From the NCBI GenBank assembly GCA_016748015.1, contig JAAOMT010000436.1, forward strand, positions 549,893-613,892: DNA of 64,000 bases, given 5' to 3'. Positions 26,262 through 50,851 of this stretch are shown one piece after another; the first letter of the stretch is position 1, and each line of letters begins with the position of its first letter. Origin of the DNA: Geosiphon pyriformis. Its lineage: Eukaryota > Glomeromycota > Glomeromycetes > Archaeosporales > Geosiphonaceae. A program made the translations under genes and the position numbers. Below the pieces are notes generated by a model. It searched no databases. It saw nothing but the letters and a program-made list of their open reading frames with translations, and was not told where the DNA came from.

Positions 26262-29200
26262 CTATGCAGCTATGTAAACTGAAACTGAGTCACCTACACC
26301 TGAAAAAAACAAACAAAGTTTGCAAAAGCCAAAACAAACATTAAAAGCATCAACAATGCCAAGCAATTTGACCACCCCAGCTGACAACCCAAAGGCCAAA
26401 CCAAAAACCAATACAAGAACCAAACCATCAAGGGAAATCAACACATTTTTCTCCATATACACATAATGTTTAGCACGAACTGACCAAACATTACTCCTAA
26501 AATTAAGACTAAGAGAGCACACAAATTTGACAATCTCCAAACCAGCAACCTTAGGATCATAAAAGATGGAGACCACCTTACAGAACCAATTATTAAAAAT
26601 GAAACCCTTATAAAGAGCCATGGCCAAAGAGGAGTCAGAAATACATGAAGACAACATTTGTAGTATGCCCAAAGAAGAATGAAAGAAATCAGAGATTGCC
26701 TTCCAGGAGTCCACATAGAATTCCAACAACTGATGTTAGACAGAGTTATTAATCTTGCAAAAAAATACATGATCTAATGCCTCCACATCACCACAATATA
26801 AGCACAACATACTTGAATATAGTCTATTATAAAGGTGCTTCTGAATAGCAACTGACAGCTGGTGGTGCAAAGTCTTTATGAAATAAGAGTGGGCATTAGC
26901 CGAGAGTCTGCTGGTAAAACCAACAGCCATGTGCAAGTTGGAGTGCCAAACCAAAAATGAATGGAGCCAGTCAACCTCAGAAAGCAAATCACCTGCCAAA
27001 AACTTGGAACCAAAACCAACCTCTTAGTATACACAACAAACCAAATAATAAATATTATGTACGAAATGTCTGAAATTGCCAGAAACCACACTACTATCAG
27101 CCACTATGAAGCATTTACCCAAGTGATAAGGAAAATACCAACCAGAGAGAGAAGTATCACCAGCAATCACATCAGCATGCTCATTCTCTGAAATCCCAGA
27201 GTGGTCTTTAACCTTATGCCAGCTGACCTTCAAGTTCTTATAGTGAATAACATTGACAATATAATAACATTTGACCCAACACTGATTATGAAAGTTAGAA
27301 CATGCCAAACCTAATTCAGACTTACAGGCATCCAGAGCAGATTGACTATCTGAAAACAGTTTAACAGAGCTTAGCAGGAGAACACACTTTAGAGCCAGTG
27401 CAATAGCCTGCAACTCCACCAAAGTAAATGACATCAAACCTGACACATTGATGTCCAAACCCAAATCAATGTCCTCAAAAAATGCAGTGGTACCAGCTCT
27501 ACAACCAACTGTGCCCAGATTACTAAGAGACCCATCTGTATATACTGACAAACTATCAGCACCAACTTGCAAGAAACAATTACAGACAAAAACAAAATCA
27601 CTAGATTCAAGAATGTTCAAAAAACCAATCCCATCCAAAACTGAGGGATAAGTGAAAAAGAAACCTCTACTATCAAAAAACACAACAGCAAGCCTGAACC
27701 ATTCAAAAACAGGACCACAGGGGTCTAATCTCTTCCAATGCTTGAAGGTGTGCCAATCAAAGACAGAACCATAATGATCATGAAGTTGATCCACAAAGAC
27801 AACACCATACTATTAGAGAGAAGGAAAAAACCTGAGAAACTGCGATTCACCCAGAACAGCAGACATAGGAACTCCACCACGAAACTAAAAGAAATTGGCC
27901 AAAGAGCCACCTAAGGACAAATTGCAGTCAAAAAGAACGCGAACCATGCCTGCCAGAAAGTTATTAGAAAAACTGACATGAATACGCACAGGAAAACTCA
28001 ATGAATGAACAGGGCACCAGCACAAAACCTGCGAGTCATGGGATCTGTAAAAGAACAAACATCCCAGGATGCTGCCTGAATTTGCAAAACTAACAAGAGA
28101 GGCTATCTTGCTTTCAGACTGGACTTGAAAAAAAGATTTCAAACCATAAAAGGAAGAGTGAAGAATTGTATCACTAAGAAAATCAAAAAGTAGACTGGAT
28201 TTAAACTTCAATCTTCTATGAATCAAGACATCCCACTTGTTGCATGTACTAATAGGAACAAAACTAAACTGAGTTCTATAACTAACTATAAAATGAAGAA
28301 CTGCTGACACCAAATATAAAAACTGTTTATCTGAAACAGCTTTTTTCAAGACCAGATTGGTAAAAAAACAAATGTCTGAATTTGCCTTTGCCAAACTAGG
28401 CTTTGAGAGACCTTTAGTCGAGAGAAAAATACTCAAATATTGATGAGATTCACCCTTTTTGGCAATGGAGATTAGCAAGCCACTAATAAAAAGAGAAGAA
28501 ATGCTGACTCTGCAATTGATAGAAATAGCCACTGTTTTGTCATTATTGATAGAAATATTATTTATCTGAAAAAATTCACTTACAACATCTAGAATGTGTT
28601 GAGTAGCTGCCTGACTACTATCAACTCAAATTGTATCATCAACAAAAGCACCAGCAGCAAAAAAAAAAGAGAGCCCAGCCTGGGACTCAGCATGACCATT
28701 CCTTGAAATAAAATGAGAACTTAACTTATAACCACATATGCTTTTCTGTCTCTTGACTTCGCATAATAGAGGATCATAAAATATATGCCACAGAAGAAAA
28801 AAAAAAACCTCTCTTTGGTCCAAACCATTATGTACACAATAACCATCCGTCAGTTCAAAGTCTGTTATCACCTTGTTGGTACAATTTTTATGAATACTAC
28901 CAAAAAACTGAATAAACTTGCCACACATCTTGATCCTGACCAAACTTTTCTTGAAATGTTCTTAGCCAACTGAATTGTATGTCTTCTGCATATCCTGCAA
29001 AACCAACCAGAGTTCTCAATCCTTTTTCAATGCATCTTCAACTACTGATCCAACTGCAAAAATAGGAGAAGAAGTTGTTGTACCTTTTAAAACTGAAAAA
29101 TTGTCCCCACAAAGAACGTCAAAAGAGCTGTATGCCAAAGAGATCCTATCAGAAAAAATCTTGGAAAGAATCTTATGAGCTGTTTCAATTAAAGCAATAG

Positions 29201-30895
29201 AGTAGATATTCGTAAGAACACCTTTCTACTCATATGATTTAGGAATTATTGAAACCCAAGCTTTTAGCCAAGATCCAAACACTAATTTGGAAGACAAACA
29301 AAAGTTTAAAAGCACTAAAAGCATATCCAGAATTGACCTGTCACAATGTTTCCAAAGCTTGTTTGTAATACCTAAAAGACCAGCAGCTTTGCCATTAAGC
29401 AGATCAGAAATCACATTAAGCAGCTCATTAAGTTCAACTGAACACATTACACCAGAAAAGACTTCATCAAAAACGTAATCCAATGGCCGATATTGATAAG
29501 ACCAAACATCAGTGACATCAACAACCATATTACACTTCCTGGTCCAACCTTCTATAATAATGTTTATCTTAGATTTAACTAAATTGGGCTTCAAAATAAG
29601 CTTGTTCTTTACAACCAGATGGTCCAAAACCACTTTGCGAAAAGAACACTCCAAAACACTCCTAATAGTATGATCTTTATTTATTTTGAAGCCTTTTATT
29701 CTCTTATTTATAGCAACTCTAATGTTTGTTTCCTTAGTTGCCAAAGATTCAGCAAGCTTGGATGCATAATAAGACTTTTTCATACCAGAGAGAACAGAAT
29801 AAACATGACTAGAGGTTGCACCAGAGTTAATGAAGTCCTAAATAACTGAGGCTTTGACACTGTCCAAAGAGTCCTAGCACTTTATAAGAGAGATGAAACT
29901 ACCAACATTGCCCTCACAAGAGACTTTGACAATCTTCAAAACCAAAAACTCCAACCTATGAAACTTTGAAAAAACTTTGGTAAAAACACTATCAAAATCC
30001 TTGAACCATTTTTTTCTAAATATCTTATTTGCAGAAAGGACCACTATCCTGTGTAAAACATCCCACATGGCATCCAGATCTGAGAACTTGACAGCAGTAG
30101 TGAATTTGTCAAAGAACATCTCAGCATTGGTCAATATAGCATTTCTAAAATTTTCCCACCTATTGTCATCAGCACTCTTGAAATCAAACTTCCAACAATC
30201 CTTATTAGCCTGCTTACAAAGAGAGTTTAACTGCACATCCAAAAGTCCACTCAAATCTACTAACACAAAAACAGCTTGATGATTAGTATTAAAAAATTCA
30301 CCAACATCATACACTACATGATCCACCACAGCATTAACTAAGTTTGCAGAAACAAACAAGAAATTAATAGTCTTAGCCATGCCCCGAGAGTTAGCCTATG
30401 TGGGCATTTTGACAAAAGAACTTCCACCCAAGGAATTGACCAAACCAAGATCTAAACACTTCTTAAAACTAGCACACCTTTGGAAGCTGTCCTTATTGAA
30501 GTCACCACCCAAAACCACAAATGAGGATTCATTAACTGCCTTTGCTATCACAGAATTAACATTATTAGCCTGAGAAAAGCGAACAGCTAGGGATGCTCTA
30601 GTGTAAAGCCTCAAAATCAACACAGAAAGTTTATTTTTGAACAACAGCTTGACTGAAAGGAGCCAACCAGGCACCTCAGAAACCTTACAGACATGACAAA
30701 CTAAAGAATTGTTCATAATGATTGCAATGCCAGCACCAAGAAACCCCTTATCTAATCCAGATAAAAAAACTTTGATCCTATTGAACTTATCCTTAATCCA
30801 GAGCTTACAACTAAACTTTAGCTTTGTCTCAGTAATTATTGAAACCAAATTTCTAGAATCTCTATGTCAATGAATAATGTCTTCTTGCTTGGTGG
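26262..30895 (-). pseudogene. Lin-3 ORF2, main part: endonuclease, RT, RNase H, zinc knuckle
   Basis: ORF2 begins at ATG 41030 (beyond Gyp-1) and continues here. Endonuclease: TETKL (about 30820), GGDFNKD (about 30505); the catalytic-type TDH is now TNH (about 30290). RT: NGKAAGLLGITN (about 29390), HNGLDQREVF (about 28815), GAFVDDTI (about 28640) with both Asp kept, LSIFLS (about 28430). RNase H: YTDGSLSNLG (about 27530), VELQAIALAL (about 27410), FSDSQSALDAC (about 27345), HADVIAGD (about 27180). The C-terminal motif CLYCGDVEALDHVFFC lies at about 26770-26810. Open segments are 30848-30396, 30380-29874, 29783-29226, 28943-28626, 28532-27885, 27794-27024, 26999-26736 and 26729-26262, separated by stops and a few frame changes. 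Confidence 0.87.
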
Positions 30896-31679
30896 TGTTA
30901 CAGATAATTATTTGAGATCTTAAATCAAATAACAAATCTGTAACTTGATGCTCAATATCTTGACAATACTGGTTTTACTAGTATGTAAGTTGTATCTGAA
31001 GGTTTTTAGAGTTGAGTTCTTTGTATAATAGACAGAGATTTAATGATGATGTAGTTGGTTGGTAAGTTGTGTTCCCAATTTCTGTTTTCAGCTTGGTGGC
31101 CAGTTTATTCTGGCATTCATGCCCTTTTGGTAAACTATCTATTAATATATATATAATTTTACTCTTATTTCTGGGTTTTTTACCAGGCTATCTGTGATGT
31201 CAATTACTCAGTATTTTAATCCTTAATCAGTTAGTATACAACAATAAAATTAAAGGAAGAAAGAAATAAAAAAAAATAAAGAAATGAGCCAAGACAATGT
31301 GCAAGTTAGAATCTTGTCAATAGCTGTAATCAAGAACTATTGTTCCAGCATGATTAAGTATCAATTACTATCAATATAAAGTGTTGATAATAGAGAGTGA
31401 ATTTGAATAGTAAATAATTTATTTATTTAATATTTGTTGATGGAAGATTTCTAACTAAAGGATTCTGCTTTTTTCTACTTTTAACATTATCACTATATAT
31501 ACATAATTGATGTTCTATGAGATTGCTCACATTCCTGAGTGATGTGTTATAATTTCTTGAGCAATGTGCCATGATTTCTGACATTGCTTCATATTGCTGA
31601 ACAATGTGCTCATGTGCTAAATACTATTCTCTTATTGGTCTACTATTTTTTTATATCTGTTTTTTTTTTATAAGTAACA
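30896..31679 (-). repeat. Gyp-1 3' LTR (784 bp)
   Basis: It begins TGTTACAGATAATT and ends ATAAGTAACA. It is highly similar to the right copy; the visible differences are mostly C/T and G/A transitions plus a shorter minisatellite near 31555-31610 (about one full 40-bp unit against about three in the other LTR). The last codons of ORF3 run into its first 29 bases on the minus strand. Confidence 0.92.
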
Positions 31680-32328
31680 TTATCTCCTCTTTTTAATATT
31701 GAGCTCCATCAAAATCTTTGTTTTGAATTAATTTTAATACTTCTTTTTCAAGTATTGTTTGTTCAACTCTGTTTTTCATGTCTTTTACTTGTGTATTGTT
31801 CATTTTTCCCCATTAGTTAATGGTTATAGTTTCTATGTCAAAGTGTAACAGTATTTCTGAATAATTCTGAAATATGTTGTGTAGTCAATAAATTGTTCTC
31901 ACATATAGTGTTGAGTTTGTCTTTTTTCCAATAAATTCTTCAATTTGCTGTATTATGTTTTGGTTAAATACTTTCTTGGATTTGTTGATATACAACTTTT
32001 GAATATTCAACTTTCGACCTAATTGGTAGTAACAGTATAATATTGGAAATTGTTCTGTTTATTGCTTCCAATTTTCTTTTGTAAGTTTTTCTGTTGGTAT
32101 CATATTAGATATTTTCCCAAAAGTGTTTTTTACTTTTTTTATTATATTATCTGACCAGTTTTTATTATTCTTTGGTAACTGCTGATATGGTGTATTCTTT
32201 GTCTTTCTTTTGATATTTTGATAGCAAATTGTTTGATTGTTAATGATAATTGTTATGTCTAAAGGTTGTTAACTTAAGGCCTGGAATAATTGTTGAGCTA
32301 TAACATGAATATAATCTGGTATTTTCAT
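31651..32328 (-). pseudogene. Gyp-1 ORF3: unrecognised protein between integrase and 3' LTR
   Basis: A single frame of 226 codons runs from ATG 32328 to TAA 31653-31651 with five internal stops, each at a TAA/TAG. It begins MKIPDYIHVIAQQLFQAL and ends ...KEEIMLLIKKKQI inside the LTR. It is alignable with ORF3 of Gyp-2 (42963-43681): FPILYCYYQLGRKLNIQKL against YPPIYRYFYIGKTLYEQKL, and LHNIF against LYNLF. There is no signal peptide or membrane segment, so it does not look like an envelope protein. It is Lys/Asn/Gln-rich and possibly helical. I do not recognise the family. Homology between two diverged elements argues that it was once a real coding gene. Confidence 0.65.
31681..31694 (-). other. 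Gyp-1 polypurine tract
   Basis: The minus-strand sequence AAAAAGAGGAGATA lies directly against the 3' LTR, the position where plus-strand DNA synthesis is primed in LTR elements. It also lies inside ORF3, where GAGGAG encodes Glu-Glu. Confidence 0.75.
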
Positions 32329-32469
32329 TTTTTTTTGGTTGTCTTTGTCATGTATACTGTGTCTTTATATATTCTTTTATTGTTTAATATTACATGTTTG
32401 GTCCAATGATTATTATTGGTTTCAGATCTCATAGAATCTTATCTGGTTAAACTAGTATTTGTTGTACTC

Positions 32470-33600
32470 CCAATTGTGGAATGTTATTGGTAGATAATGA
32501 TGCTATTTGGTGATATGGTTTTAGTCAATCACTATGTGCTGCTTTAGCTAAGATTTTGTTGTTCCATCTTAGTTTATAAGCTCCATTTCCAAGAATTTTT
32601 TCTATGTAAAATAGTCCATCCCATTTGGAGTCAAATTTTCTATTCCATTGTTTTTCCACTTTGGTACAATGTAAAAGTACTTTGTCTCCAATCTTGAATT
32701 CAACTGGTTTATCTAGTAATTGATTATCATGTCATTCTTTTTGCTTCTTTTGAGACTTTTGGATGTTATCAACTGCTTTTTGCTATTTATTTTCTAATGT
32801 TTCCATTAAGTCATATGTTTTTTTTAGCAATATTTCCTGAAAATTGTCTTCAGTTATTGGTTCTATTGGATAAGTGGTAACTTCCATCTCAATTGGTAAT
32901 GTTGCTGTTTTACCATATACTAATTCAAATGGTGTTGCTTATGTAGTGTTTTGCTTCATTGTCTGATAAGCAAATAATACTAATGGTATGAACAAATTCC
33001 ATTTGTCCTGATTTTCTTGACTGATCTTGGCGATTGCTTCACACAATGTTCTATTAAATTTCTCAACTAACTTATTTGTTTGTGAATGATATGGTGATAA
33101 TAATAGTCTTTTAATTCCAAATCTTTGACTTAATTCTGCTAATATTCTGTTCACAAAGTGAGTTCCTTAATCTGATAATAGTTCTTTTGGACAACCATGT
33201 CAACAAATCAAATCTTGATAAACAAATTTGGCAATGGATTCTGCATCTGTTCTTTGAATGGCTTTTGCTTCTGGCCATTTAGTGAGATAATCTATGGCTA
33301 CTGTGATATATCTGTTGTCTCTGCTGATAATTGTTAATGGTCTGACTAAATCAATTCCAATGTGATCAAATAGTTGTCCCACTTTGATTGGTCTTAATGG
33401 TTCACTTGGTCTTGTTCCATCTCTTCTCTGACAAGTATCACAATTCTGAACATATTGGATGATGTCTGGATACATTGATGGCCAATAGTATTTTTTTCTG
33501 GTTTTTTCTATGGTTGTTTCTTTATGGAAATGTCCTGCTGTTGGATTTGAGTACATGTTGAATAGTATTGTTTCTTTTTTTGATTCTGTAATTACTCTGG
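32470..33600 (-). pseudogene. Gyp-1 integrase
   Basis: Integrase inserts element cDNA into the chromosome. Zinc-binding part: GHFHKETT...CDTCQRR (about 33430-33540). Catalytic core: first Asp in IGIDLV (about 33355), second Asp in LLSD (about 33170), Glu in LVEKFNRT (about 33060), with exactly 35 residues between the second Asp and the Glu. A GPY/F-like C-terminal module follows (WDGLFYIEKILGNGAYKL, about 32575-32625). In-frame stops occur at several points, including the residue after LLSD. The frame upstream (33522-33815) is shifted. Confidence 0.88.
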
Positions 33601-33891
33601 TTGGTTGGTCTGGATTTCTTTTGTTTTTCTAATAAAGTATATTTTGATGATTGATGAAATATTTTGATTGCTGTTTTATGTTGTTTTGTTTTTTTTGAGA
33701 TAATTTCTCTTTGAATGATTGAGTATTTATATAATGCTGAAGTTGTTGGTATTTTTGTGTGTTCATCTTTTGTTATATTTTTGGGTTGAAATGTTATTAG
33801 ATTTGTCTTATTCATGACAATCCATTAGCATTTCCATTGTCTTTTCTCTTTTATAATGTACTGTATAATTAAATGGTAAAAGTTCTATTTT

Positions 33892-34203: not shown

Positions 34204-35000
34204 TTAGATAAGCTTTTTTCTCAATGTATCGAATGCTTCTTGTTGAGCTTCAGTCCATTCATACTTTACATTCTTGGTTTGTAAATAGTGAAGTGGCTGA
34301 GCTAGTTTAGAAAAATCCTTGATGAAGTGGTAATAGTAGCCTGCAAATCCCAAAAATACTCTTAGTTTTGGCAAGTTGGCTGGTACTGGAAAGTTCTTAA
34401 CTACTTTGATCTTGTCTGGATCTGTTTTGATTCCGTCTTTGCTTACCACATGTCCCAAAAACTTGAGTTCAGTTTTTTCAAAGAAACATTTGGTTGCATT
34501 TAATTTCAATTCAGCTCTTCTTAACCTTTTGAATACTTGTTGGAGATAATACAGATGATCATTAAATGTTTTTGAGAACACATTGGTGTCATCCAAGTAT
34601 ATGACTACTGATTTCCATAGTAGTCCAGTATAAACAATTTCCATAAGCCATTGGAATGTGGCTGGAGCATTCATCAAGCCAAATGGCATGACTTCAAACT
34701 CAAAATTTTCTTCTCTTGTGGTGAATGCTGTTTTTTTTTTGTTGGCTGGATCTATGGCTACTTGCCAGTATTCACTATCTAGATCTAATGTTGAAAACCA
34801 TTTATTTCCTCCAAAAGCATAGAATAGTTCTTGGATCTTGGGGATTGGATAACTATCTCCTTTGGTTACTCCATTCAGTTTCTGGTAATCTACACAAAAG
34901 CGGATTTTTCTATTTTTCTTATGAACTAATACTACTGGTGACAACTATGAACTCATTAATGGCTGAATTAGCCCGTTGTCAAGCATCCAGTTGATTTCTT
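34204..35000 (-). pseudogene. Gyp-1 reverse transcriptase
   Basis: Open from 34944 to 34204. Motifs: SPVVLVHKKNRKIRFCVDYQKLN, DSYPIP, FSTLDLDSEYWQVAI, KTAFTTREENFEF, MPFGLMNAPATFQ, and the catalytic box YLDDTNVFS (about 34575-34600) with both Asp present. This is the typical Ty3/gypsy RT with tether FLGFAGYYYHFIKDFSKLAQPL. Upstream of 34950 the frame has several stops (35000-35210). The RT core itself looks the best preserved of the three Ty3-like copies. Confidence 0.92.
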
Positions 35001-38199: not shown

Positions 38200-40024
38200 T
38201 TTTGATATTGATTTCTCAATCATTGGTTATTTAAACAATGGCAGCAATTAATTTGTAGATGTCCTTGTTTACCACAATAGTGACAAACACCCATTTCCTG
38301 TTGTCACTGTTGATTGGTTGATGATGATAGACATGACTGATTCTGGAAACAATTTATGTTTCCAGAATTATTGCATCATTGTGCTGGTTGATAAATTACA
38401 CAATTGTCAGCTAAGTATCCCTCTAATTTCTGATTGATGGAATCACTAAATTGTTTCAATTTGGAATCCAATTCAGATAATCTATTCATTACTAGATTAA
38501 TGGCTTAACATGGTTGGCTTCTAATTCAGCAGCTTCAAAATCTCTGGCATTTGTGATGACTGCTTGCAGATTGACAAAATACATTGGACATATGCATTGC
38601 AGGATGCTACTGTGTAATCTGTAAATAAACTGATTTAGGATCTGGGCTACTGTGAAGTAATTGGCATCAATGGTTTGGATTTGGTGCAGATTCCTGTAGA
38701 AGTGTCCTAAGTAAATAGTGACTGCTTCATTTTCTCTTTGTTTGATGATAGTGAAAGTGTTTATTAGCCTATTAATACTGTTATTATTGCTGAAATATCT
38801 TAAGAACTCAATTTTGAATGCATTGAAATCTTGGAGTTTGTTGACTAGGCTTTAATATTATGAATTAGTGGTATTCTGAAGAAAATATAAAATGGCTTGT
38901 ATTGCTCTGGTGTTATTCCATCCATTAGCTGCTATGGCTTTTTCTACATTGTTAAGCCATACTTGGGCATTATTCTTTTCGCTGGTGAATTTTTCGAGTT
39001 TTGCTATTGGAGCGTAGGCTATTGGATCCAAGTTTGGTTGTTGAAGTTGTTGTTGCAGCTATAAAAGTGGCTGCTATGGTAGTTGAAGTGGTTGAAGTGG
39101 CTGTTGTTGCTGTTTGTCAATTGGTGGAGCTGAGGTTGGATTGATCACAATTACTGGAGGTAAGTGTTGTTGATTATTAATGTTGGGGTTTTGATCATTC
39201 TGATTGTGCTGTGTTTGAAAATTTGGAGTTTCAATTTCTGGATTTTCTAAATTTAGATTTTTCTGAGTCTAAAAGTTCGGGGTTTCAATTTTCTGATTTT
39301 CAGTGATCAGGTTCTGGTAAGTAAATTCTTGATCTTCAGATTCTTCTTTCTCTTTTTTTTGGTCTTCTTCTGATTTTGTTACTTCTCAGGAACTTGTGGT
39401 TCTGAAATCTGGTTGGAATAGCAGAAATCGGAGCCCTGATGGCATAGACAATCAAAACTTAAATCCTTTGAAATATGCACCATATAGTCTTAGAAGATCT
39501 TCTTTCTTTTGTTTACTCTGAAATGGAAATTGTCCAAAGGTTGATGTCATGTTTAATGTGAACACACCTGTTAATGTAATATTGATGGCACTTCTGGGTG
39601 TATAATGGTATAATGGATTAGTTGGTGATTTAACTCTTGTTTTCTTCCAAGTAGATGGTTATATCCTTTGAGATGTTATTGTTGGTGTTTGTAATTTTCT
39701 TTTGTCTTTGTTTGCATAGGTAATTGGATATCTTTGTTGAGTGTGAATTTCAATTTCCTTATTGATTTCAGTGAGGATTGCTGTGAAATTATAATTTGTT
39801 GGTAAGCTGGTATTTTGGATTAATTTGTTGTAGAAGTTTCCTTTAGCTGAGTTGGTTTCTACTAGTACTCCTAGTAAATATGAGATTTTCTTGTGAATGT
39901 AGAAATTAAAAGCTGATTCTGCTGATAAGTAATTGTCAGTTAATCTTAAATGTTGACAGTAATGTTGAAATAAAGATTTCGCAAATTCTAAATGGTTTGT
40001 CCCTGTTTCTTTGGATTCTGTCAT
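38200..40024 (-). pseudogene. Gyp-1 gag with CCHC knuckle
   Basis: The start at ATG 40024 (MTESKETGTN) is 63 bases inside the 5' LTR. The first 121 codons are open to 39659. Further parts resemble retrotransposon gag (NQFIYRLHSSILQCICP... NARDFEAAELEA, about 38510-38640). A CCHC knuckle C-x2-C-x4-H-x4-C (CHYCGKQGHLQINC) lies at 38244-38285. Gln/Pro-rich spacer at about 39050-39150. Many stops break the rest. Gag would form the virus-like particle and bind element RNA. Confidence 0.82.
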
Positions 40025-40087: not shown

Positions 40088-40971
40088 TGTTACAAATGAT
40101 TATTTGGGGTCTCAAATCAAATAACAAATCCATAACTTGATGCTCAATATCTTGACAATGCTGGTTTCACTGGTATTTGGATTGTATCTGAAGGTTTTTA
40201 GAGTTAAGTCCTTTGTATAATAAACAGAGATTTAATGATGATGTAGTTGGTTGGTGAGTTGTGTTCCCAATTTCTGTTTTCAGCTTGGTGGCCAGTTTAT
40301 TTTGGCATTTGTGCCCTTCTGGTAAGCTATCTGTTAATATATATATAATTTTACCCTTATTTCTGGGTCTTTTATCAGACTATTCATGATGTCAATTACT
40401 CAGCGCTTTAATCTTTAATTAGTTAGTATACAACAATAAAATCAAAAGAAGAAAGAAATAAAAGAAAATAAAGAAATGAGCCAAGGTGATATGCAAGTTA
40501 GTATCTCATTAATAGCTGTGATCAAAAGTTATTGTTCTAGCATGGTTAAGTATTAATTACTATTAACATAAAGTGTTAATAGTAAAGAGTAGATTTGGAT
40601 GGTAAATGATTTATTTATTTAATATTTGTTGATGGAAGATTTCTAACTAAAAGATTCTGTCTTTTTCTACTTTTAACATTACCACTATATATACATAATT
40701 GATGTTCTATGAAATTGCTCACATTCCCGAGTGATATGTTATGATTTCTTAAGCAATGCTCACATTGCTGAACAATGTGCCCTAATTTTCTAATATTGCT
40801 CCATATTGCTGAGCAATGTGCTGTGTTTTCTGACATTGCTCCACATTGTTGAGCAATGTGCCATGATTTCTGATATTGCTCCATATTGCTAAGGAATATG
40901 CTCATGTGCTAAATACTATTTTCTTATTGGTCTACTATTTTTTTATATCTGTTTTCTTTTTATGAGTAACA
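40088..40971 (-). repeat. Gyp-1 5' LTR (884 bp)
   Basis: It begins TGTTACAAATGATT and ends ATGAGTAACA. It is about 100 bp longer than the left LTR, mainly because of extra copies of a 40-bp minisatellite unit (40740-40905). The 96-codon minus-strand opening 40615-40905 is a translation of this repeat, not a gene. Confidence 0.92.
40740..40905. repeat. Minisatellite with hairpin-forming 40-bp unit in the Gyp-1 LTR
   Basis: About three full units plus partials, each like CTGAGCAATGTGC..TTTCTGA.ATTGCTCCACATTG. Each unit carries an inverted repeat (CACATTG...CAATGTG) that could form a hairpin of about 7 bp. The left LTR has about one full unit, so copy number changed after integration or during reverse transcription. 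Confidence 0.8.
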
Positions 40972-42026: not shown

Positions 42027-42994
42027 TGTTACCAGAGGTTTTTGGGTCTTTTTTCTTCAATATTGTTGATACCTGTTTACTGTGAATTCACGTTTTCTGG
42101 ATGTGGTTGAACCTCCAGTAACTGAATTTATCTTCAAATTATCTCCTATAATTTGAACTGCTGGGCTTATAAGTGGAATGGCCAATTTTGTGCCAGTTAC
42201 TTTGTATAGTTACATTGTAGTAAATGTCAACTCTTTCTCAGGAATTGCTTATCTGAAAGTTCACTAAAATGTGTAGTTACTTTGCTGTGAAAGTCAACTC
42301 TTCTACAGAAATCTTGTCTGTATGCTACTCTAATAATTGTAATAAGAAAATAAAAGAAAAATAAAATAAATGTAAAAGAAAAAGTAAAACTGATGATTTA
42401 TAGAAGTCGTTTTGGATCCAGGCCTGGAAGTGCTTTAACAGTCTTACTGAAATTGGTAGCTAATCAATTTCAAACTGTTAGTAAGGATTGATTAATTTCA
42501 AGAGAAATAATTTAAAAATTTGATTTTTCGAATTATTTGATATTTATTTTGTTTTTGTATGTAAAGGATGATTCTAATTATTAAATCTGAAGTAAGATAC
42601 ATTTCCTTGAAGAGAGAAGCTCTTCTTTTATACAACTTGTCATAACACTATTCTATGAACTTAAACTTTGCTATTTTCTATAATTTTGCTGAACTAATGA
42701 TACATTTCAGCAAACTACAAGTTATTTCTGCAAACTATTAGATATTTCGGCAAATTTCTTACAAATTTTGGTGAATTTTTTAAATGTTACATAATTTGGG
42801 GTATTGCATGATTGATCATCACAATTAGGTTACATTTGTGTTATGTACAAATTGAGTTATTAATTAAATGATAATTTCGGATATTTTGCTAATGTAATAA
42901 GTGATAATTTGAAATGATAATATATGCTAATTAATGATAAGATTTATAAGAGTAATTTCATGCTAAACAATATCTTTAATTTCGTCTGGTAATA
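42027..42994 (-). repeat. Gyp-2 3' LTR (968 bp)
   Basis: It is nearly identical to the right copy apart from transitions and a segment (GGGCTTATAAGT, about 42163-42175) absent from the right LTR. It contains a short degenerate array around 42705-42790 with the core TTTCNGCAAA(CT) repeated about every 25 bp. Confidence 0.92.
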
Positions 42995-43681
42995 TAACCT
43001 CCTCCTCAAGACTGAGCTCTGTCGAAATCCAAGTACTGTCTGTAATTTCCAGATAGTAATCCAAAATTATTGAAGAAATTTGGTCTAAAAATTGTTGAAA
43101 TTTCAGTTCTGTGAGCTTTCCAATGTATTGAATCTTCAAAGGCTGTAAAATTGGGTTTTGTAGAACGTTTTCACAGGTGTGGAATAGGTTATAAAGTCTA
43201 AGGGCAGCTCTTAGTTTATAATGACTGTTTGTAGGTCCAGCTGTTGTCTTGAATTCATTGTGAAATTGTTTCTGAATAGCTTCTTTTGTGAGGTTTGCTG
43301 ATGTAAGCTCTAGTTTTTGCTCATAAAGTGTTTTTCCAATATAGAAATATCTATATATTGGGGGGTATTTGTCATTTTCTTCATTAAGACACAGTTGAAG
43401 TTTTTGTTGAATAGTAGTATTTAGTAGAATACTAATAGGAGTGAGCAATAAATTTTTTCTTAAAGCAAGCTTCAAAAGTTTTGGTAAATAAATTTCAGAA
43501 TAACTTCTTGTGTTCTTCCTATAAAAGTGATACTTTCGTGAATTTGGGGCTAGATTTGTAACTATTTCTGTTTGGGTATAATTAATATGTTTTCCAGTAA
43601 TAGTATGGATAATTCGGGTATTGTTTTTAAAGCTAACATTAGTTTTTGGAATAATTGTTGAATGTTTTGAGGAATAGTCAT
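42963..43681 (-). pseudogene. Gyp-2 ORF3: unrecognised protein between integrase and 3' LTR
   Basis: ATG at 43681-43679 starts MTIPQNIQQLFQKL, matching the start of Gyp-1 ORF3 (MKIPDYIHVIAQQLFQAL). After one frameshift near 43640 the frame is open without a stop for about 220 codons to 42963, ending ...LSLEEEVILPDEIKDIV inside the LTR. The stretch YPPIYRYFYIGKTLYEQKL and the following LRLYNLFHTCENVL have counterparts in Gyp-1. The middle includes a Tyr/Leu/Lys-rich stretch. No signal peptide, membrane helix or known motif is visible. Apart from the frameshift this is the longest undamaged frame in Gyp-2, unusual among its stop-ridden neighbours. Confidence 0.68.
42995..43010 (-). other. Gyp-2 polypurine tract
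   Basis: Minus-strand CTTGAGGAGGAGGTTA directly beside the 3' LTR. It lies within ORF3, where it encodes LEEEVI. Confidence 0.75.
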
Positions 43682-43869
43682 TATATGAGATTTGAAAATA
43701 AAAGAAAATTATTTTTGGTGCATGGGTTTTTATGTTATTTTGTTTTGTTTTTGTGAGATTGTTTCTAAATTATAAGAAAATAACTATAATAATAAATTTA
43801 ATTTAAGTGTTCAAGTTGGGAGGTTGTTCAATGACAACTATTGGTTCTAAATTCCAGGGAATATCTTCA

Positions 43870-45060
43870 GGATTGATTAAAAAGGAATGTGTGCCAATTT
43901 GTGGAATTAATGGTTCGGATTGTTTCTGGAATTATAGTGTTTCAAATAATCTCCATGTGCAACTTTTGCTAGGATTTTGTCATCAAGTCTTAGCTTATAT
44001 GATCTATTGCCTAGAATTTTATGAATAAAAAATGATTCATCTCATTTATTTTCAAATTTTTCACTCTATTGTTTTTCAGCTTTAGTTCTGTGTAAGAGAA
44101 CTTTATTTCCAACTTTAAATTCATTGGTAATAGGTGGTAATTTGTTGTCATGTCTTTCTTTTTGTTAAGCTTGAGAATGTTCAATATGAGTTGCTGCTAT
44201 TTGTCGTTTTCTTTTCAATGTGCTAAGCAGAGTGTAGGCTCTTCATTGTAGTGTTTCCTGGAAATTGTTTTTATTAATTGGTTGTGCTAAGTATGTTTCC
44301 ACTGTGAAACTAATTGGTAATGTTGCTATCCTTCCGTAAGTTAAATCAAATGGTGTGTGTTTTGTGGTATCTTGTTTTAATGTTCTATATGCTAGTAACA
44401 CTGATGGAATAAAGATATCTCACTCTTGCTCAAAATCGGTTGAGACTTTGGCTAATGACTCACACAATGTTCTGTTAAAACATTCTACAAGTCTGTTTGT
44501 TTGTGGATGGTAGAGTGAAGACAGAGGCCTTTTGACATTGAATTGTTCGCAAATTTCTTGTATCAGGTTGTTTACAAAGTGTGTTCCTTGATCAGATAAA
44601 AGTTTAATTAGACATCCATGTCTACAAATGATGTCTTTGTAGATGAAATTTGCTACTGATTTTGCATCTGCTCATTGAATGGCTCTGGCTTCGGGCCATT
44701 TAGTAAGATAGTCTACAGCTACTGCAATATAATGATTTCCTTGAGTGATAATAGATAGTGGTCCAACTAAATCGATACCAACTCAGTCAAAGGGTTGTCC
44801 AACTTTGATTGGATTTAATGGTTCAGTAGGGTGTGTTTCTTCTCTTCTTTGACAACTATCATAAAATTCGACATATTTGTGAATGTCTTTTCTCATTCGA
44901 GGCCAAAAGTAGTATTCTAGTGTTCTTTGGGTGGTACTGTTTTTTCCAAAGTGTGCTGATAAAGGATCTAAGTACATGTTGTATAATATAGTCTCTTTTT
45001 CCTGTTCTTGTATTAATCTGGTTTGTCAGGGTTTTTGAAATTTTGATGATAAATAATGTT
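43870..45060 (-). pseudogene. Gyp-2 integrase
   Basis: Zinc-binding part: SAHFGKNSTTQRTLEYYFWP... DSCQRREETHP (about 44840-44960). Core: GIDLVGPLS (about 44770), LLSDQGTHF (about 44595), LVECFNRTLC (about 44490), again with D-x35-E spacing. The C-terminal module is DESFFIHKILGNRSYKL (about 43990-44045). Stops are scattered (for example after GQPFD and in AIQ*ADAK), and one Cys of the zinc pair is Tyr (EFYDSC). Confidence 0.87.
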
Positions 45061-45354: not shown

Positions 45355-46500
45355 CTAAGTATTTTTGTTCTGAAACCATTTGAATCCAATATTATCAGTG
45401 ATAATATCGAATTCCTTTGGCTGGAAATAAAGGTTGAAATAATGTAGGGCCCAAATTATGGCTGCTGTTTCCAATTCAGTGGCAGGATAATTTTTTTCAG
45501 CTGGTTTTGATGTTCTGCTAGCATAGACAATTACTTGCTCGTTTTCATTGTCATCCAATTGTGATAGGATAGCACCAAAGGCAGTATAAAAGGCATCTGT
45601 TGCTAATCGGAATTGGTTGCCGAAATCTGGGTAGGCAAGAATTGGAGCTGTCATTAGTTTTTTTTTGAGGATTTCAAATGCATTTTGGCATTCAGCAGTC
45701 CATTTGTATTCGACGTTTTTGGTGGTAAGCTGGTTGAGAGGTTTTGCGATTTCTGAGAATTTTTTGATAAACTTCTGAAAGTAGGAGGCTAATTCTATGA
45801 ATCCTCTTAGTTCTGTAGTGTTTTGAAGAATTTTGAAGTTTTTGACAGCACTGATTTTTTCAGGGTCCGGTTTGATTCCATCTTTACTAATAATATGACC
45901 AAGGAAGGCCAAGTTTGTTTTTTCAAAGTAGTATTTTTCAATGTTGAGTTTTAGTCCTGCTTTTCATAATCGTTAAAAAACTTCTCACAGGTGTTTTAAG
46001 TGTAATTTGAACGATGGAGAATAAACATCAGTATTGTCAAGATAAATGACTACTGACTTCTAAAGGAGTCCTTGGTACACAATATCTATTAATCTCTGAA
46101 ACATTGCTGGTGCATTGCATAATCCGAAAAGCATTACATTGAACTTGTAATTTCCGCCTTGGGTGGTGAATGCTGTTTTGGGGCAATCTTTGGAATCCAT
46201 TGCAACTTGCCAGTAACTGCTTTCTAAATCTAGTGTTGAAAAGTATTTGGATTTTCCAAGGGCATCTAACATGTCATCAATTCGGGGAAGGGGGTAGGCA
46301 TCTCCAATTGTAACACTGTTGAGTTGTTGATAGTCAACACAAAATCATATCTTTCCATTTTTCTTTTTAACTAGCACTACAAGTAAAGCCCAAAGACTTA
46401 TGGAGGGTTGGATGAGCCCATTGTTAAGCATTCATTGTACTTCTTTTCAGATGAATTGGTGGCTTTCTAGGACAACTCAATATGCTTGTTGTCTTTTTAG
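45355..46500 (-). pseudogene. Gyp-2 reverse transcriptase and RNase H
   Basis: RT: NGLIQPS, FCVDYQQLNSVTIGDAYPLP, FSTLDLESSYWQVAMD, KTAFTTQGGNYKFNVMLFGLCNAPAMFQRL (open 46272-46060), then VVIYLDNTDVYS at about 46035, where the canonical YLDD has become YLDN. After several stops the tether and RNase H are open at 45912-45355: FLGHIISKDGIKPDP, FRLATDAFYTAFGAILSQ, YASRTSKPAEKNYPATELETAA and IITDNIGFKWF. The YLDN change would inactivate polymerisation. Confidence 0.9.
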
Positions 46501-49897: not shown

Positions 49898-50851
49898 TGT
49901 TATCGGAGGTTTTTGGTCTCTTTTCTTCAATGTTGTTGATACCTGTTTGCTGTGAATTCACGTTTTTGGGTGTGGTTGAACCTCCAGTAACTGAATTTAT
50001 TTTCAAATTATCTCCTATAATTTGAACTGCTGGAATGGCCAATTTTGTGCCAGTTACTTTGTATAGTTACATTGTAGTAAACATCAACTCTTTCCCAGGA
50101 ATTGCTTATCTGAAAGCTCACTAAAATGTGTAGTTACTTTGCTGTGAAAGTCAACTCTTCTACAGAAATCTTGTCTGTATGCTACTCTAATGATTATAAT
50201 AAGAAAATAAAAGAAAAATAAAAGAAATGTAAAAGAAAAAGTAAAACTGATAATTTATGGAAGTCATTTCGGATCCAGGCCTGGAAGTGCTTTAACAGTT
50301 TTACTGAAATTGGTAGCTAATCAATTTCAAACTGTTAGTAAGGATTGGTTAATTTCAAGGGAAATAATTTAAAAATTTGATTTTTCGAATTATTTGATAT
50401 TTATTTTGTTTTTGTATATAAAGGATAATTCTAATTATTAAATCTGAAGTAAGATACATTTTCTCGAAGAGAAAAGCTCTTCTTTTATACAACTTGTCGT
50501 AACATTATTCTATAAACTTGAACTTTGCTATTTTCTATAATTTTGTTGAACTAATGATACATTTCAGCAAACTACAAGTTATTTCTGCAAACTATTAAAT
50601 ATTTTGGCAAATTTTTTACAAATTTCAGCAAACTTTTTGAATGTTACATAGTTTGGGGTATTGCATAATTGATTATCGCAATTAGGTTACATTTGTGTTA
50701 TGTACAAATTAGATTATTAATTAAATGATAATTTCGGATATTTTGCTAATGTAATAAGTAATAATTTGAAATGATAATATATGCTAATTAATAATAATAT
50801 TTATAAGGATAATTTCATGCTAAACAATATCTCTAATTTCGTCTGGTAACA
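49898..50851 (-). repeat. Gyp-2 5' LTR (954 bp)
   Basis: It starts TGTTATCGG and ends TCTGGTAACA and is followed by the CCAT duplication and Lin-3 ORF1. It is slightly shorter than the left copy because of the missing GGGCTTATAAGT-type segment. Confidence 0.92.

What the first reader, a model, noticed from the sequence alone, without database searches (positions are those of the whole stretch)
31651..32328. Third ORF downstream of integrase in Gyp-1, conserved in Gyp-2
Between integrase and the 3' LTR, Gyp-1 has one consistent frame (226 codons, five stops, all TAA or TAG), and Gyp-2 (42963-43681) has a homologous one that is almost undamaged. Starts (MKIP/MTIP...QQLFQ), an internal block (FPILYCYYQLGRKLNIQKL against YPPIYRYFYIGKTLYEQKL) and the end (EE at the polypurine tract, about 10 codons inside the LTR) all correspond. 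The two elements have unrelated LTRs, so conservation of the ORF suggests selection during their active life. It sits in the place of env but shows no signal peptide or membrane segment.
Basis: partly seen in the sequence, partly recalled or inferred. Interest (0 to 1): 0.75.

Follow-up and report, generated by a model that had tools for sequence, protein, structure and literature searches.

The report
Third gene in Geosiphon gypsy retrotransposons
Between integrase and the last repeat, gypsy-type jumping genes of the fungus Geosiphon pyriformis carry a real third gene for a small soluble protein of unknown job, which selection kept working while the elements were active.

Summary
The window lies in the fungus Geosiphon pyriformis. 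Gyp-1 has a damaged third gene at 32328-31693 (minus strand, 211 codons, four internal stops). Its terminator, a TAA just before the polypurine tract, is present in 38 of 38 copies, so in Gyp-1 the gene does not enter the LTR. In Gyp-2 (43681-42963) it does, for about ten codons; that copy has no stop over its last 217 codons but a frameshift near its start. Related proteins form at least four types in this genome (Gyp-1, Gyp-2/2b, a Gyp-3 and a Gyp-4 type), 23-38% identical between types. A spectrum-corrected dN/dS is 0.45 (Gyp-2), 0.60-0.72 (Gyp-1) and 0.35 (Gyp-2 against 2b), against 0.94-2.2 in the other two sense frames; young 2b copies alone give 0.93. It is not part of integrase, has no fixed frame relative to pol, and shows no membrane segment, so env is unlikely. 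No convincing relative was found by sequence or fold. Best reading: an accessory gene of the retrotransposon encoding an intracellular, mostly helical protein with two ordered modules. A role in handling element RNA or DNA is inferred only.

The parts
31693..32328 (-). Gyp-1 ORF3: ATG at 32328, 211 codons, terminator TAA 31695-31693; four internal stops in this copy
31680..31692 (-). Gyp-1 polypurine tract, directly after the ORF3 terminator and before the LTR
   Evidence: read by eye
31698..31706 (-). Gyp-1 GAGCTCAAT motif before the polypurine tract, inside the end of ORF3
   Evidence: place read by eye
32329..32389 (-). Gyp-1 spacer between the usual pol end (stop at 32392-32390) and the ORF3 ATG
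30896..31679 (-). Gyp-1 3' LTR
40088..40971 (-). Gyp-1 5' LTR
33200..33628 (-). Gyp-1 integrase, zinc-binding and first core part
   Evidence: Integrase_H2C2, E 3.8e-18
34204..34944 (-). Gyp-1 reverse transcriptase
   Evidence: RVT_1, E 6.4e-30
38492..38851 (-). Gyp-1 gag piece
   Evidence: Retrotrans_gag, E 0.00022, 21.8 bits, just under its cut-off of 24.1
42963..43681 (-). Gyp-2 ORF3: ATG at 43681, stop TAG 42965-42963; frameshift between about 43637 and 43544; annotated at NCBI as G9A89_014859 (P0004)
42995..43007 (-). Gyp-2 polypurine tract, inside ORF3
   Evidence: read by eye
43011..43019 (-). Gyp-2 GAGCTCAGT motif before the polypurine tract, inside ORF3, in another reading frame than in Gyp-1
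   Evidence: place read by eye
43682..43802 (-). Gyp-2 spacer between the usual pol end (stop at 43805-43803) and the ORF3 ATG
42027..42994 (-). Gyp-2 3' LTR (first two bases added by eye); contains the last ten codons of ORF3
49898..50849 (-). Gyp-2 5' LTR as aligned; its first bases may lie one or two further out
44420..44671 (-). Gyp-2 integrase core piece
   Evidence: rve, E 6.2e-5, under its cut-off
45355..45963 (-). Gyp-2 end of reverse transcriptase and RNase H
   Evidence: RT_RNaseH_2, E 1.7e-32

Best explanation
ORF3 is a genuine third gene of Ty3/gypsy LTR retrotransposons in Geosiphon pyriformis. It lies downstream of pol in the sense direction, after a short spacer, and ends at the polypurine tract (Gyp-1) or just inside the LTR (Gyp-2). 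It encodes a soluble protein of up to about 240 residues with two ordered modules: an N-terminal helix with a beta hairpin, and a helical core with a Y.(Y/F)(Y/F).(I/L)G..L ... (R/K)(A/T)..R(L/I)(Y/F)..F signature; a loose linker joins them. It was kept by selection while the elements were mobile (shown by codon tests). The product most likely works inside the cell as an accessory factor of the element's life cycle, on its RNA, DNA or particle, as other non-env third genes are thought to do (inferred; about 0.4 for RNA or DNA handling as the specific role). It is probably made from a spliced or subgenomic mRNA or by reinitiation, because its frame relative to pol is not fixed (inferred). Copies then decay by C-to-T type mutation (seen). 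The stated confidence is for the accessory-gene reading as a whole; that it is a real selected gene I hold at about 0.95.
For: Terminator conserved in 38 of 38 Gyp-1 copies. Omega in frame against the shifted sense frames: Gyp-1 0.60 vs 0.97 and 1.86; Gyp-2 0.45 vs 1.06 and 2.19; Gyp-1 copies found by DNA search 0.72, jackknife SE 0.03, vs 0.94 and 1.93; Gyp-2 x 2b 0.35 vs 1.46 and 1.72. ORF3 of 25 Gyp-2 loci 0.45, integrase tail of 26 Gyp-2 loci 0.73. Homologous proteins in four types. Constraint strongest in the parts predicted to be ordered (Gyp-2 x 2b: core 108-200 0.22, N-terminus 1-38 0.31, linker 0.62). Frame relative to pol varies between copies. No membrane segment. Diverges more than the pol and gag pieces compared: 23% against 35-64%.
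Against: No transcript or protein data. No known domain, so the intracellular role rests on precedent and lack of a membrane segment. Omegas are pooled pairwise values from non-independent copies; protein-selected sets are biased low. Young 2b copies alone give 0.93, no lower than their +1 frame, 0.95. In Gyp-1 the first 89 codons show no constraint among the DNA-selected copies (1.13 and 0.97). One antisense frame of Gyp-2 also goes low, 0.57, as its third positions coincide with those of ORF3. Model confidence is low overall (pLDDT 57.8 and 44.5). LTR context of the Gyp-3 type was not checked.
Confidence: 0.7

Rival explanations
1. ORF3 counters host silencing of the elements: it blocks the RNA-silencing or methylation machinery that later leaves the C-to-T decay seen in old copies.
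For: It diverges more than the other pieces compared, and old copies are heavily decayed by transitions: 152 of 154 stop events lie at Gln, Trp or Arg columns.
Against: No direct evidence; fast divergence has other causes; no similarity to a known suppressor was found in the libraries searched (the PADLOC library was not searched).
Confidence: 0.15
2. ORF3 is a particle component: a second Gag-like or matrix-like helical protein of the virus-like particle.
For: Mostly helical prediction; small and soluble.
Against: The Gyp-1 Gag N-terminal piece is not similar to the ORF3 profile (hhalign E 0.54); no fold match; the elements have a separate gag piece.
Confidence: 0.15
3. ORF3 is an envelope-like or membrane-fusion gene that carries the element between cells.
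For: It sits where env sits.
Against: Largest 19-residue hydropathy mean 0.44-1.04 and no hydrophobic N-terminus in five proteins. Even the short sORF2 fusogens of insect elements are transmembrane proteins (abstract of PMC11952523).
Confidence: 0.03
4. ORF3 is not a gene: its open frame reflects base composition, a cis-acting DNA signal, or a displaced piece of integrase.
For: A GAGCTYART motif before the polypurine tract is kept in different reading frames in Gyp-1 and Gyp-2, so the last few codons are shaped by DNA-level constraint. Young 2b copies show omega 0.93.
Against: 0 of 2000 shuffles reach the observed openness in either element; omega is low in the ORF3 frame and not in the two shifted sense frames of Gyp-1, Gyp-2 and Gyp-2 x 2b; the profiles match no other part of the window convincingly.
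Confidence: 0.03

Closest known systems
Additional sense ORFs between pol and 3' LTR (aORF-3S) of plant LTR retrotransposons (review PMC7264820; part 1 of 3 read)
   Same: Same place and direction; carried by most copies; conserved; function unknown
   Different: Those described are often env-like with transmembrane domains; none seen here. Fungal host; no sequence link was tested
CERV of the C. elegans retrotransposon Cer1 (PMC10309623, abstract)
   Same: A novel non-env protein of an LTR element; the precedent for RNA export
   Different: No sequence comparison was made; whether ORF3 is made from a spliced mRNA is unknown
TRP28 antisense ORFs of plant Retand elements (PMC11963269, abstract)
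   Same: Extra gene between pol and 3' LTR of a gypsy lineage, thought to be regulatory
   Different: Antisense there, sense here; no sequence comparison was made
Diverse ORF3s of bdelloid rotifer LTR elements (PMC5408684, abstract)
   Same: Third ORFs that are not all env
   Different: Those named are a GDSL esterase, a DEDDy exonuclease or an env-like glycoprotein; Pfam shows no such domain here
sORF2 of Drosophila MDG1-group elements (PMC11952523, abstract)
   Same: Accessory ORF of an env-less LTR element
   Different: sORF2 is a short transmembrane protein; ORF3 has no membrane segment

Membership tests
Ty3/gypsy LTR retrotransposon (the carrier) | Paired LTRs round gag and pol, with RT and RNase H before integrase | tested here: met
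   LTR pairs for Gyp-1 and Gyp-2; RT, RNase H and integrase pieces in gypsy order. Not shown for the Gyp-3 type; for Gyp-4 only a purine tract and TGTTAC/TGTTAT after the stop in 2 copies
Additional sense ORF between pol and 3' LTR (aORF-3S) | Separate sense ORF downstream of pol, in most copies of a family and conserved | tested here: met
   copies come from searches for ORF3 itself, so the share of elements that lack it was not measured
Retroviral or errantiviral env | Signal peptide and transmembrane segment | tested here: not met
   Hydropathy of five proteins
Retroviral or errantiviral env | Expression from a spliced mRNA | not testable with these tools
   No transcript data
TRP28 ORF of Retand | Antisense to gag-pol | tested here: not met
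   ORF3 is in the sense direction
DUF1016_N (PF17761) | Score over the curated cut-off | tested here: not met
   5 of 41 members match at E 0.1, best 0.0039; in the whole genome one match, a Gyp-2-type ORF3, 18.7 bits against a cut-off of 32.8
Displaced piece of Gag | Profile similarity to the element's Gag | tested here: not met
   hhalign E 0.54 with the Gyp-1 Gag N-terminal piece; other gag parts only through the window scan
Any fold in PDB or viral models | Clear structural match of the core domain | tested here: inconclusive

The most novel reading that the evidence does not exclude
ORF3 is a retroelement protein family not seen before, so far known only from Geosiphon, present in at least four types and diverging faster than pol. 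It would be an intracellular accessory protein that defeats host control or drives the nuclear stage of the cycle, and the first accessory gene family described for gypsy elements of the Glomeromycotina.
Probability: 0.3. Interest if true: 0.6.

Novelty: new variant of a known kind. Interest (0 to 1): 0.45.

Why it matters
Geosiphon is the fungus that keeps cyanobacteria inside its cells (recalled), and its genome is given as 64% repeats (PMC9453076, passages). Its gypsy elements carry a third gene that was under selection and for which I found no known relative. It offers a testable case of an accessory gene in fungal retrotransposons. It also has a practical side: 196 proteins match the Gyp-2 query and 240 match the wider profile (the two sets overlap). 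Those listed stand as hypothetical proteins of Geosiphon, so retrotransposon genes inflate the annotated gene set.

Tried and rejected
Gag origin of ORF3: hhalign of the Gyp-1 Gag N-terminal piece with the ORF3 profile, E 0.54. Integrase origin: no convincing profile match elsewhere in the window. Known domains: Pfam, PHROGs and NCBIfam gave only weak matches that disagree with one another (DUF1016_N 5 of 41 members, best 0.0039; phrog_23683 19 of 41, best 1.4e-4; FtsQ 28 of 41, best 6.7e-5, with 19.5 bits against a cut-off of 366 in the first member); taken as chance. Solved structures by sequence: 0. Folds: nothing convincing; the Gyp-1 model was too poor to search. Viral contigs: 105 pattern stretches, 0 relatives; prokaryote contigs: 119, 0. 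A 645-residue open frame at one copy proved to hold a long run of N. Open frames of 2200-3000 residues may be of the same kind and were not looked into.

Full report
Where it is. The window is G000:C330:549893-613892. The matching proteins listed are all from Geosiphon pyriformis.

The elements. Gyp-1 and Gyp-2 lie on the minus strand. Gyp-1 has LTRs at 40971-40088 and 31679-30896; Gyp-2 at 50849-49898 and 42994-42027 (outermost bases read by eye). Between them lie pieces of gag, RT, RNase H and integrase in the gypsy order. blastn finds no similarity between the two LTR regions, though 5' LTR copies begin TGTTACT and TGTTACC (the Gyp-2 3' LTR reads TATTACC).

The frame. In Gyp-1 it runs from ATG 32328 through 211 codons to TAA 31695-31693. 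Four internal stops (TAA, TAA, TGA, TAA) contrast with 20 and 12 in the other sense frames; 0 of 2000 dinucleotide shuffles had as few in their best frame. The TAA is present in 38 of 38 copies and stands directly before the polypurine tract (44 Gyp-1 loci, 3 dropped for frame breaks or short match, 3 for being duplicates). In Gyp-2 the gene runs from 43681 to 42963, its last ten codons inside the LTR; the open stretch is 268 codons, the longest in 2000 shuffles 143. That copy has a frameshift near its start. The NCBI model for this place (P0004, G9A89_014859) lacks the part round the shift, as if a predicted intron skips it (intron inferred).

The family. Searches of the same genome scored 150 places each and all matched: Gyp-2 (of 2453 first-look candidates), Gyp-1 (of 3319), the sister 2b (of 2314), and a Gyp-4 type seen in the second half of P0111 (of 3111). 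I did not check the lists for shared places. A Gyp-3 type found beside a Gyp-1 copy (L052) gave 151 matches, of which the weaker ones include Gyp-1 places. Of 24 rows at 63-65% identity to it, 22 have no stop inside the match, though 2 of 3 such copies fetched have a TGA right after it. BLAST links the types: Gyp-1 with Gyp-3 and 3b 36-37% (E 2e-27 or better), Gyp-1 with Gyp-4 33% (E 3e-25), Gyp-3 with Gyp-4 38% (E 3e-19), Gyp-2 with Gyp-3b 27% (E 2e-8), Gyp-2 with Gyp-4 30% (E 7e-8), Gyp-1 with Gyp-2 23% (E 1e-4; 36.2 bits against at most 28.9 in 60 shuffles) (E for a nominal database of 200,000 residues). The alignment of 14 proteins shows the shared core. The two Gyp-4 frames read lack the N-terminal module. 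LTR context is shown for Gyp-1 and Gyp-2, seen in part for 2b and Gyp-4 (purine tract and TGTTAC or TGTTAT after the gene), and not checked for Gyp-3.

Selection. I counted synonymous and other changes in codons that differ at one site and compared them with what the same base changes would give at random positions of the same sequence. Omega in the frame and in the +1 and +2 sense frames: Gyp-1, 38 copies, 0.60, 0.97, 1.86; Gyp-2, 28 copies, 0.45, 1.06, 2.19; Gyp-2b, 19 copies, 0.93, 0.95, 1.35. The three antisense frames gave 0.73-1.67, 0.57-2.08 and 0.88-1.40; the lowest is the one whose third positions coincide with those of ORF3. Copies found by protein search favour low values, so I used 28 Gyp-1 loci found by DNA search, of which 25 passed the filter: 0.72 (jackknife SE 0.03) against 0.94 (SE 0.07) and 1.93. 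Between stop-free Gyp-2 and 2b copies, 171 pairs of 9 and 19 copies: 0.35 against 1.46 and 1.72. Integrase tails of 26 Gyp-2 loci gave 0.73, and ORF3 in 25 of those loci 0.45. Gyp-1-like integrase pieces gave 0.39-0.44, but that set mixes families; ORF3 of 29 Gyp-1 loci among them gave 0.59. Along the protein, Gyp-2 x 2b gives 0.22 in 108-200, 0.31 in 1-38, 0.62 in 39-107 and 0.49 in 201-235. The DNA-selected Gyp-1 set gives 0.60 in 90-175, 0.49 in 176-211, and 1.13 and 0.97 in 1-40 and 41-89, so no constraint shows in its first part. Pooled pairs are not independent; a tree-based test remains to be done. Young 2b copies differ mostly by changes after insertion, which would explain 0.93 (inferred).

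Decay. About 94% of single-site changes in the DNA-selected Gyp-1 copies are transitions. Of 154 stop events in 38 copies, 152 lie at columns where most other copies have Gln (110), Trp (39) or Arg (3). This is what cytosine deamination or a RIP-like process gives.

Not part of pol. Where the pol tail could be read, the ORF3 ATG follows the pol stop at 54-66 nt in the 14 Gyp-1 rows printed (of 22), and at 103-152 nt in 13 of the 14 Gyp-2 rows printed (of 24). Its phase relative to pol is 9, 7 and 6 of 22 Gyp-1 loci and 4, 7 and 13 of 24 Gyp-2 loci (duplicates were not removed, L002 and L045 being one place). Length change in A-runs and decay may account for this, but a fixed frameshift or fusion is unlikely.

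End of the gene. A GAGCTYART motif lies 24-28 nt before the LTR start ATGTTAY in 32 of 38 Gyp-1, 23 of 28 Gyp-2 and 16 of 19 Gyp-2b copies, and GAGCTCAAT stands in both Gyp-4 copies read. It is read as G-A-Q in Gyp-1 and Gyp-4 and as E-L-S in Gyp-2, so it is kept as DNA. I take it for part of the plus-strand priming signal (inferred).

Protein. Largest 19-residue hydropathy means are 0.44-1.04 in five proteins, with no hydrophobic N-terminus. AlphaFold with 41 sequences: mean pLDDT 57.8, blocks of 74-88 in residues 111-170, helix 5-19 and strands 24-29 and 32-37 at the N-terminus, weak linker. The better predicted parts are those under strongest constraint, which supports two modules. The Gyp-1 model is poor (44.5). 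No fold match.

Divergence. Gyp-1 against Gyp-2: RT 59%, first integrase piece 59%, integrase C-terminal piece 64%, RNase H 40%, gag piece 35%, ORF3 23%. The first five compare damaged copies from the window; ORF3 compares intact relatives.

What it does. Shown: a selected protein-coding gene, soluble by sequence, with homologues in four types. Inferred: an intracellular accessory role. Precedents for non-env third genes: RNA export by CERV (abstract), possible DNA binding by TRP28 (abstract), enzymes in rotifers (abstract). I rank RNA or DNA handling first (0.4), then anti-silencing and particle roles (0.15 each); the rest is unknown.

Known or new. Searches of the open-access library for Geosiphon with retrotransposons, transposable elements or repeats, for additional or third ORFs, for Glomeromycotina gypsy elements and for accessory or anti-silencing proteins (only the listed titles and abstract starts seen) showed no paper on such a gene in these fungi. 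A survey of fungal LTR elements holds neither 'env' nor 'envelope' (PMC3248453, term search); a study of Rhizophagus irregularis transposons has no 'ORF' hit (PMC11075540, passages). The original Geosiphon genome paper was not read. The place is a known kind; the protein family appears new.

Noticed in passing
window 42963-43681; proteins P0001-P0148: Retrotransposon ORF3 copies are annotated as Geosiphon host genes: 196 database proteins match the Gyp-2 query and 240 the wider profile, among them the window copy G9A89_014859. Some models join ORF3 to pol, gag or other ORF3 pieces (P0031, P0057, P0111, P0134, P0139).
   Followed up: partly
window 40823-40898: The Gyp-1 5' LTR holds about 76 nt with no counterpart in its 3' LTR; the two LTRs are 86.5% alike over most of their length, which suggests an old insertion.
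   Followed up: no
window 26262-30866: Minus-strand frames next to the Gyp-1 3' LTR look like a LINE (endonuclease-like, RT-like and RNase H-like stretches, by eye).
   Followed up: no
ends of Gyp-1, Gyp-2, Gyp-2b and Gyp-4 ORF3: GAGCTYART stands 24-28 nt before the LTR start and is read in different frames by different families, pointing to a DNA-level signal beside the polypurine tract.
   Followed up: partly
Gyp-1 copies genome-wide: Stops lie almost only at Gln, Trp and Arg columns (152 of 154) and about 94% of single-site changes are transitions: a RIP-like or deamination decay in this fungus.
   Followed up: partly
L036, near locus positions 1501-2541: One copy holds two overlapping partial ORF3 matches in tandem.
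   Followed up: no
window as a whole: G+C alternates sharply between about 11-17% and 40-43% over 2-kb steps, the richer stretches being largely element-like.
   Followed up: no
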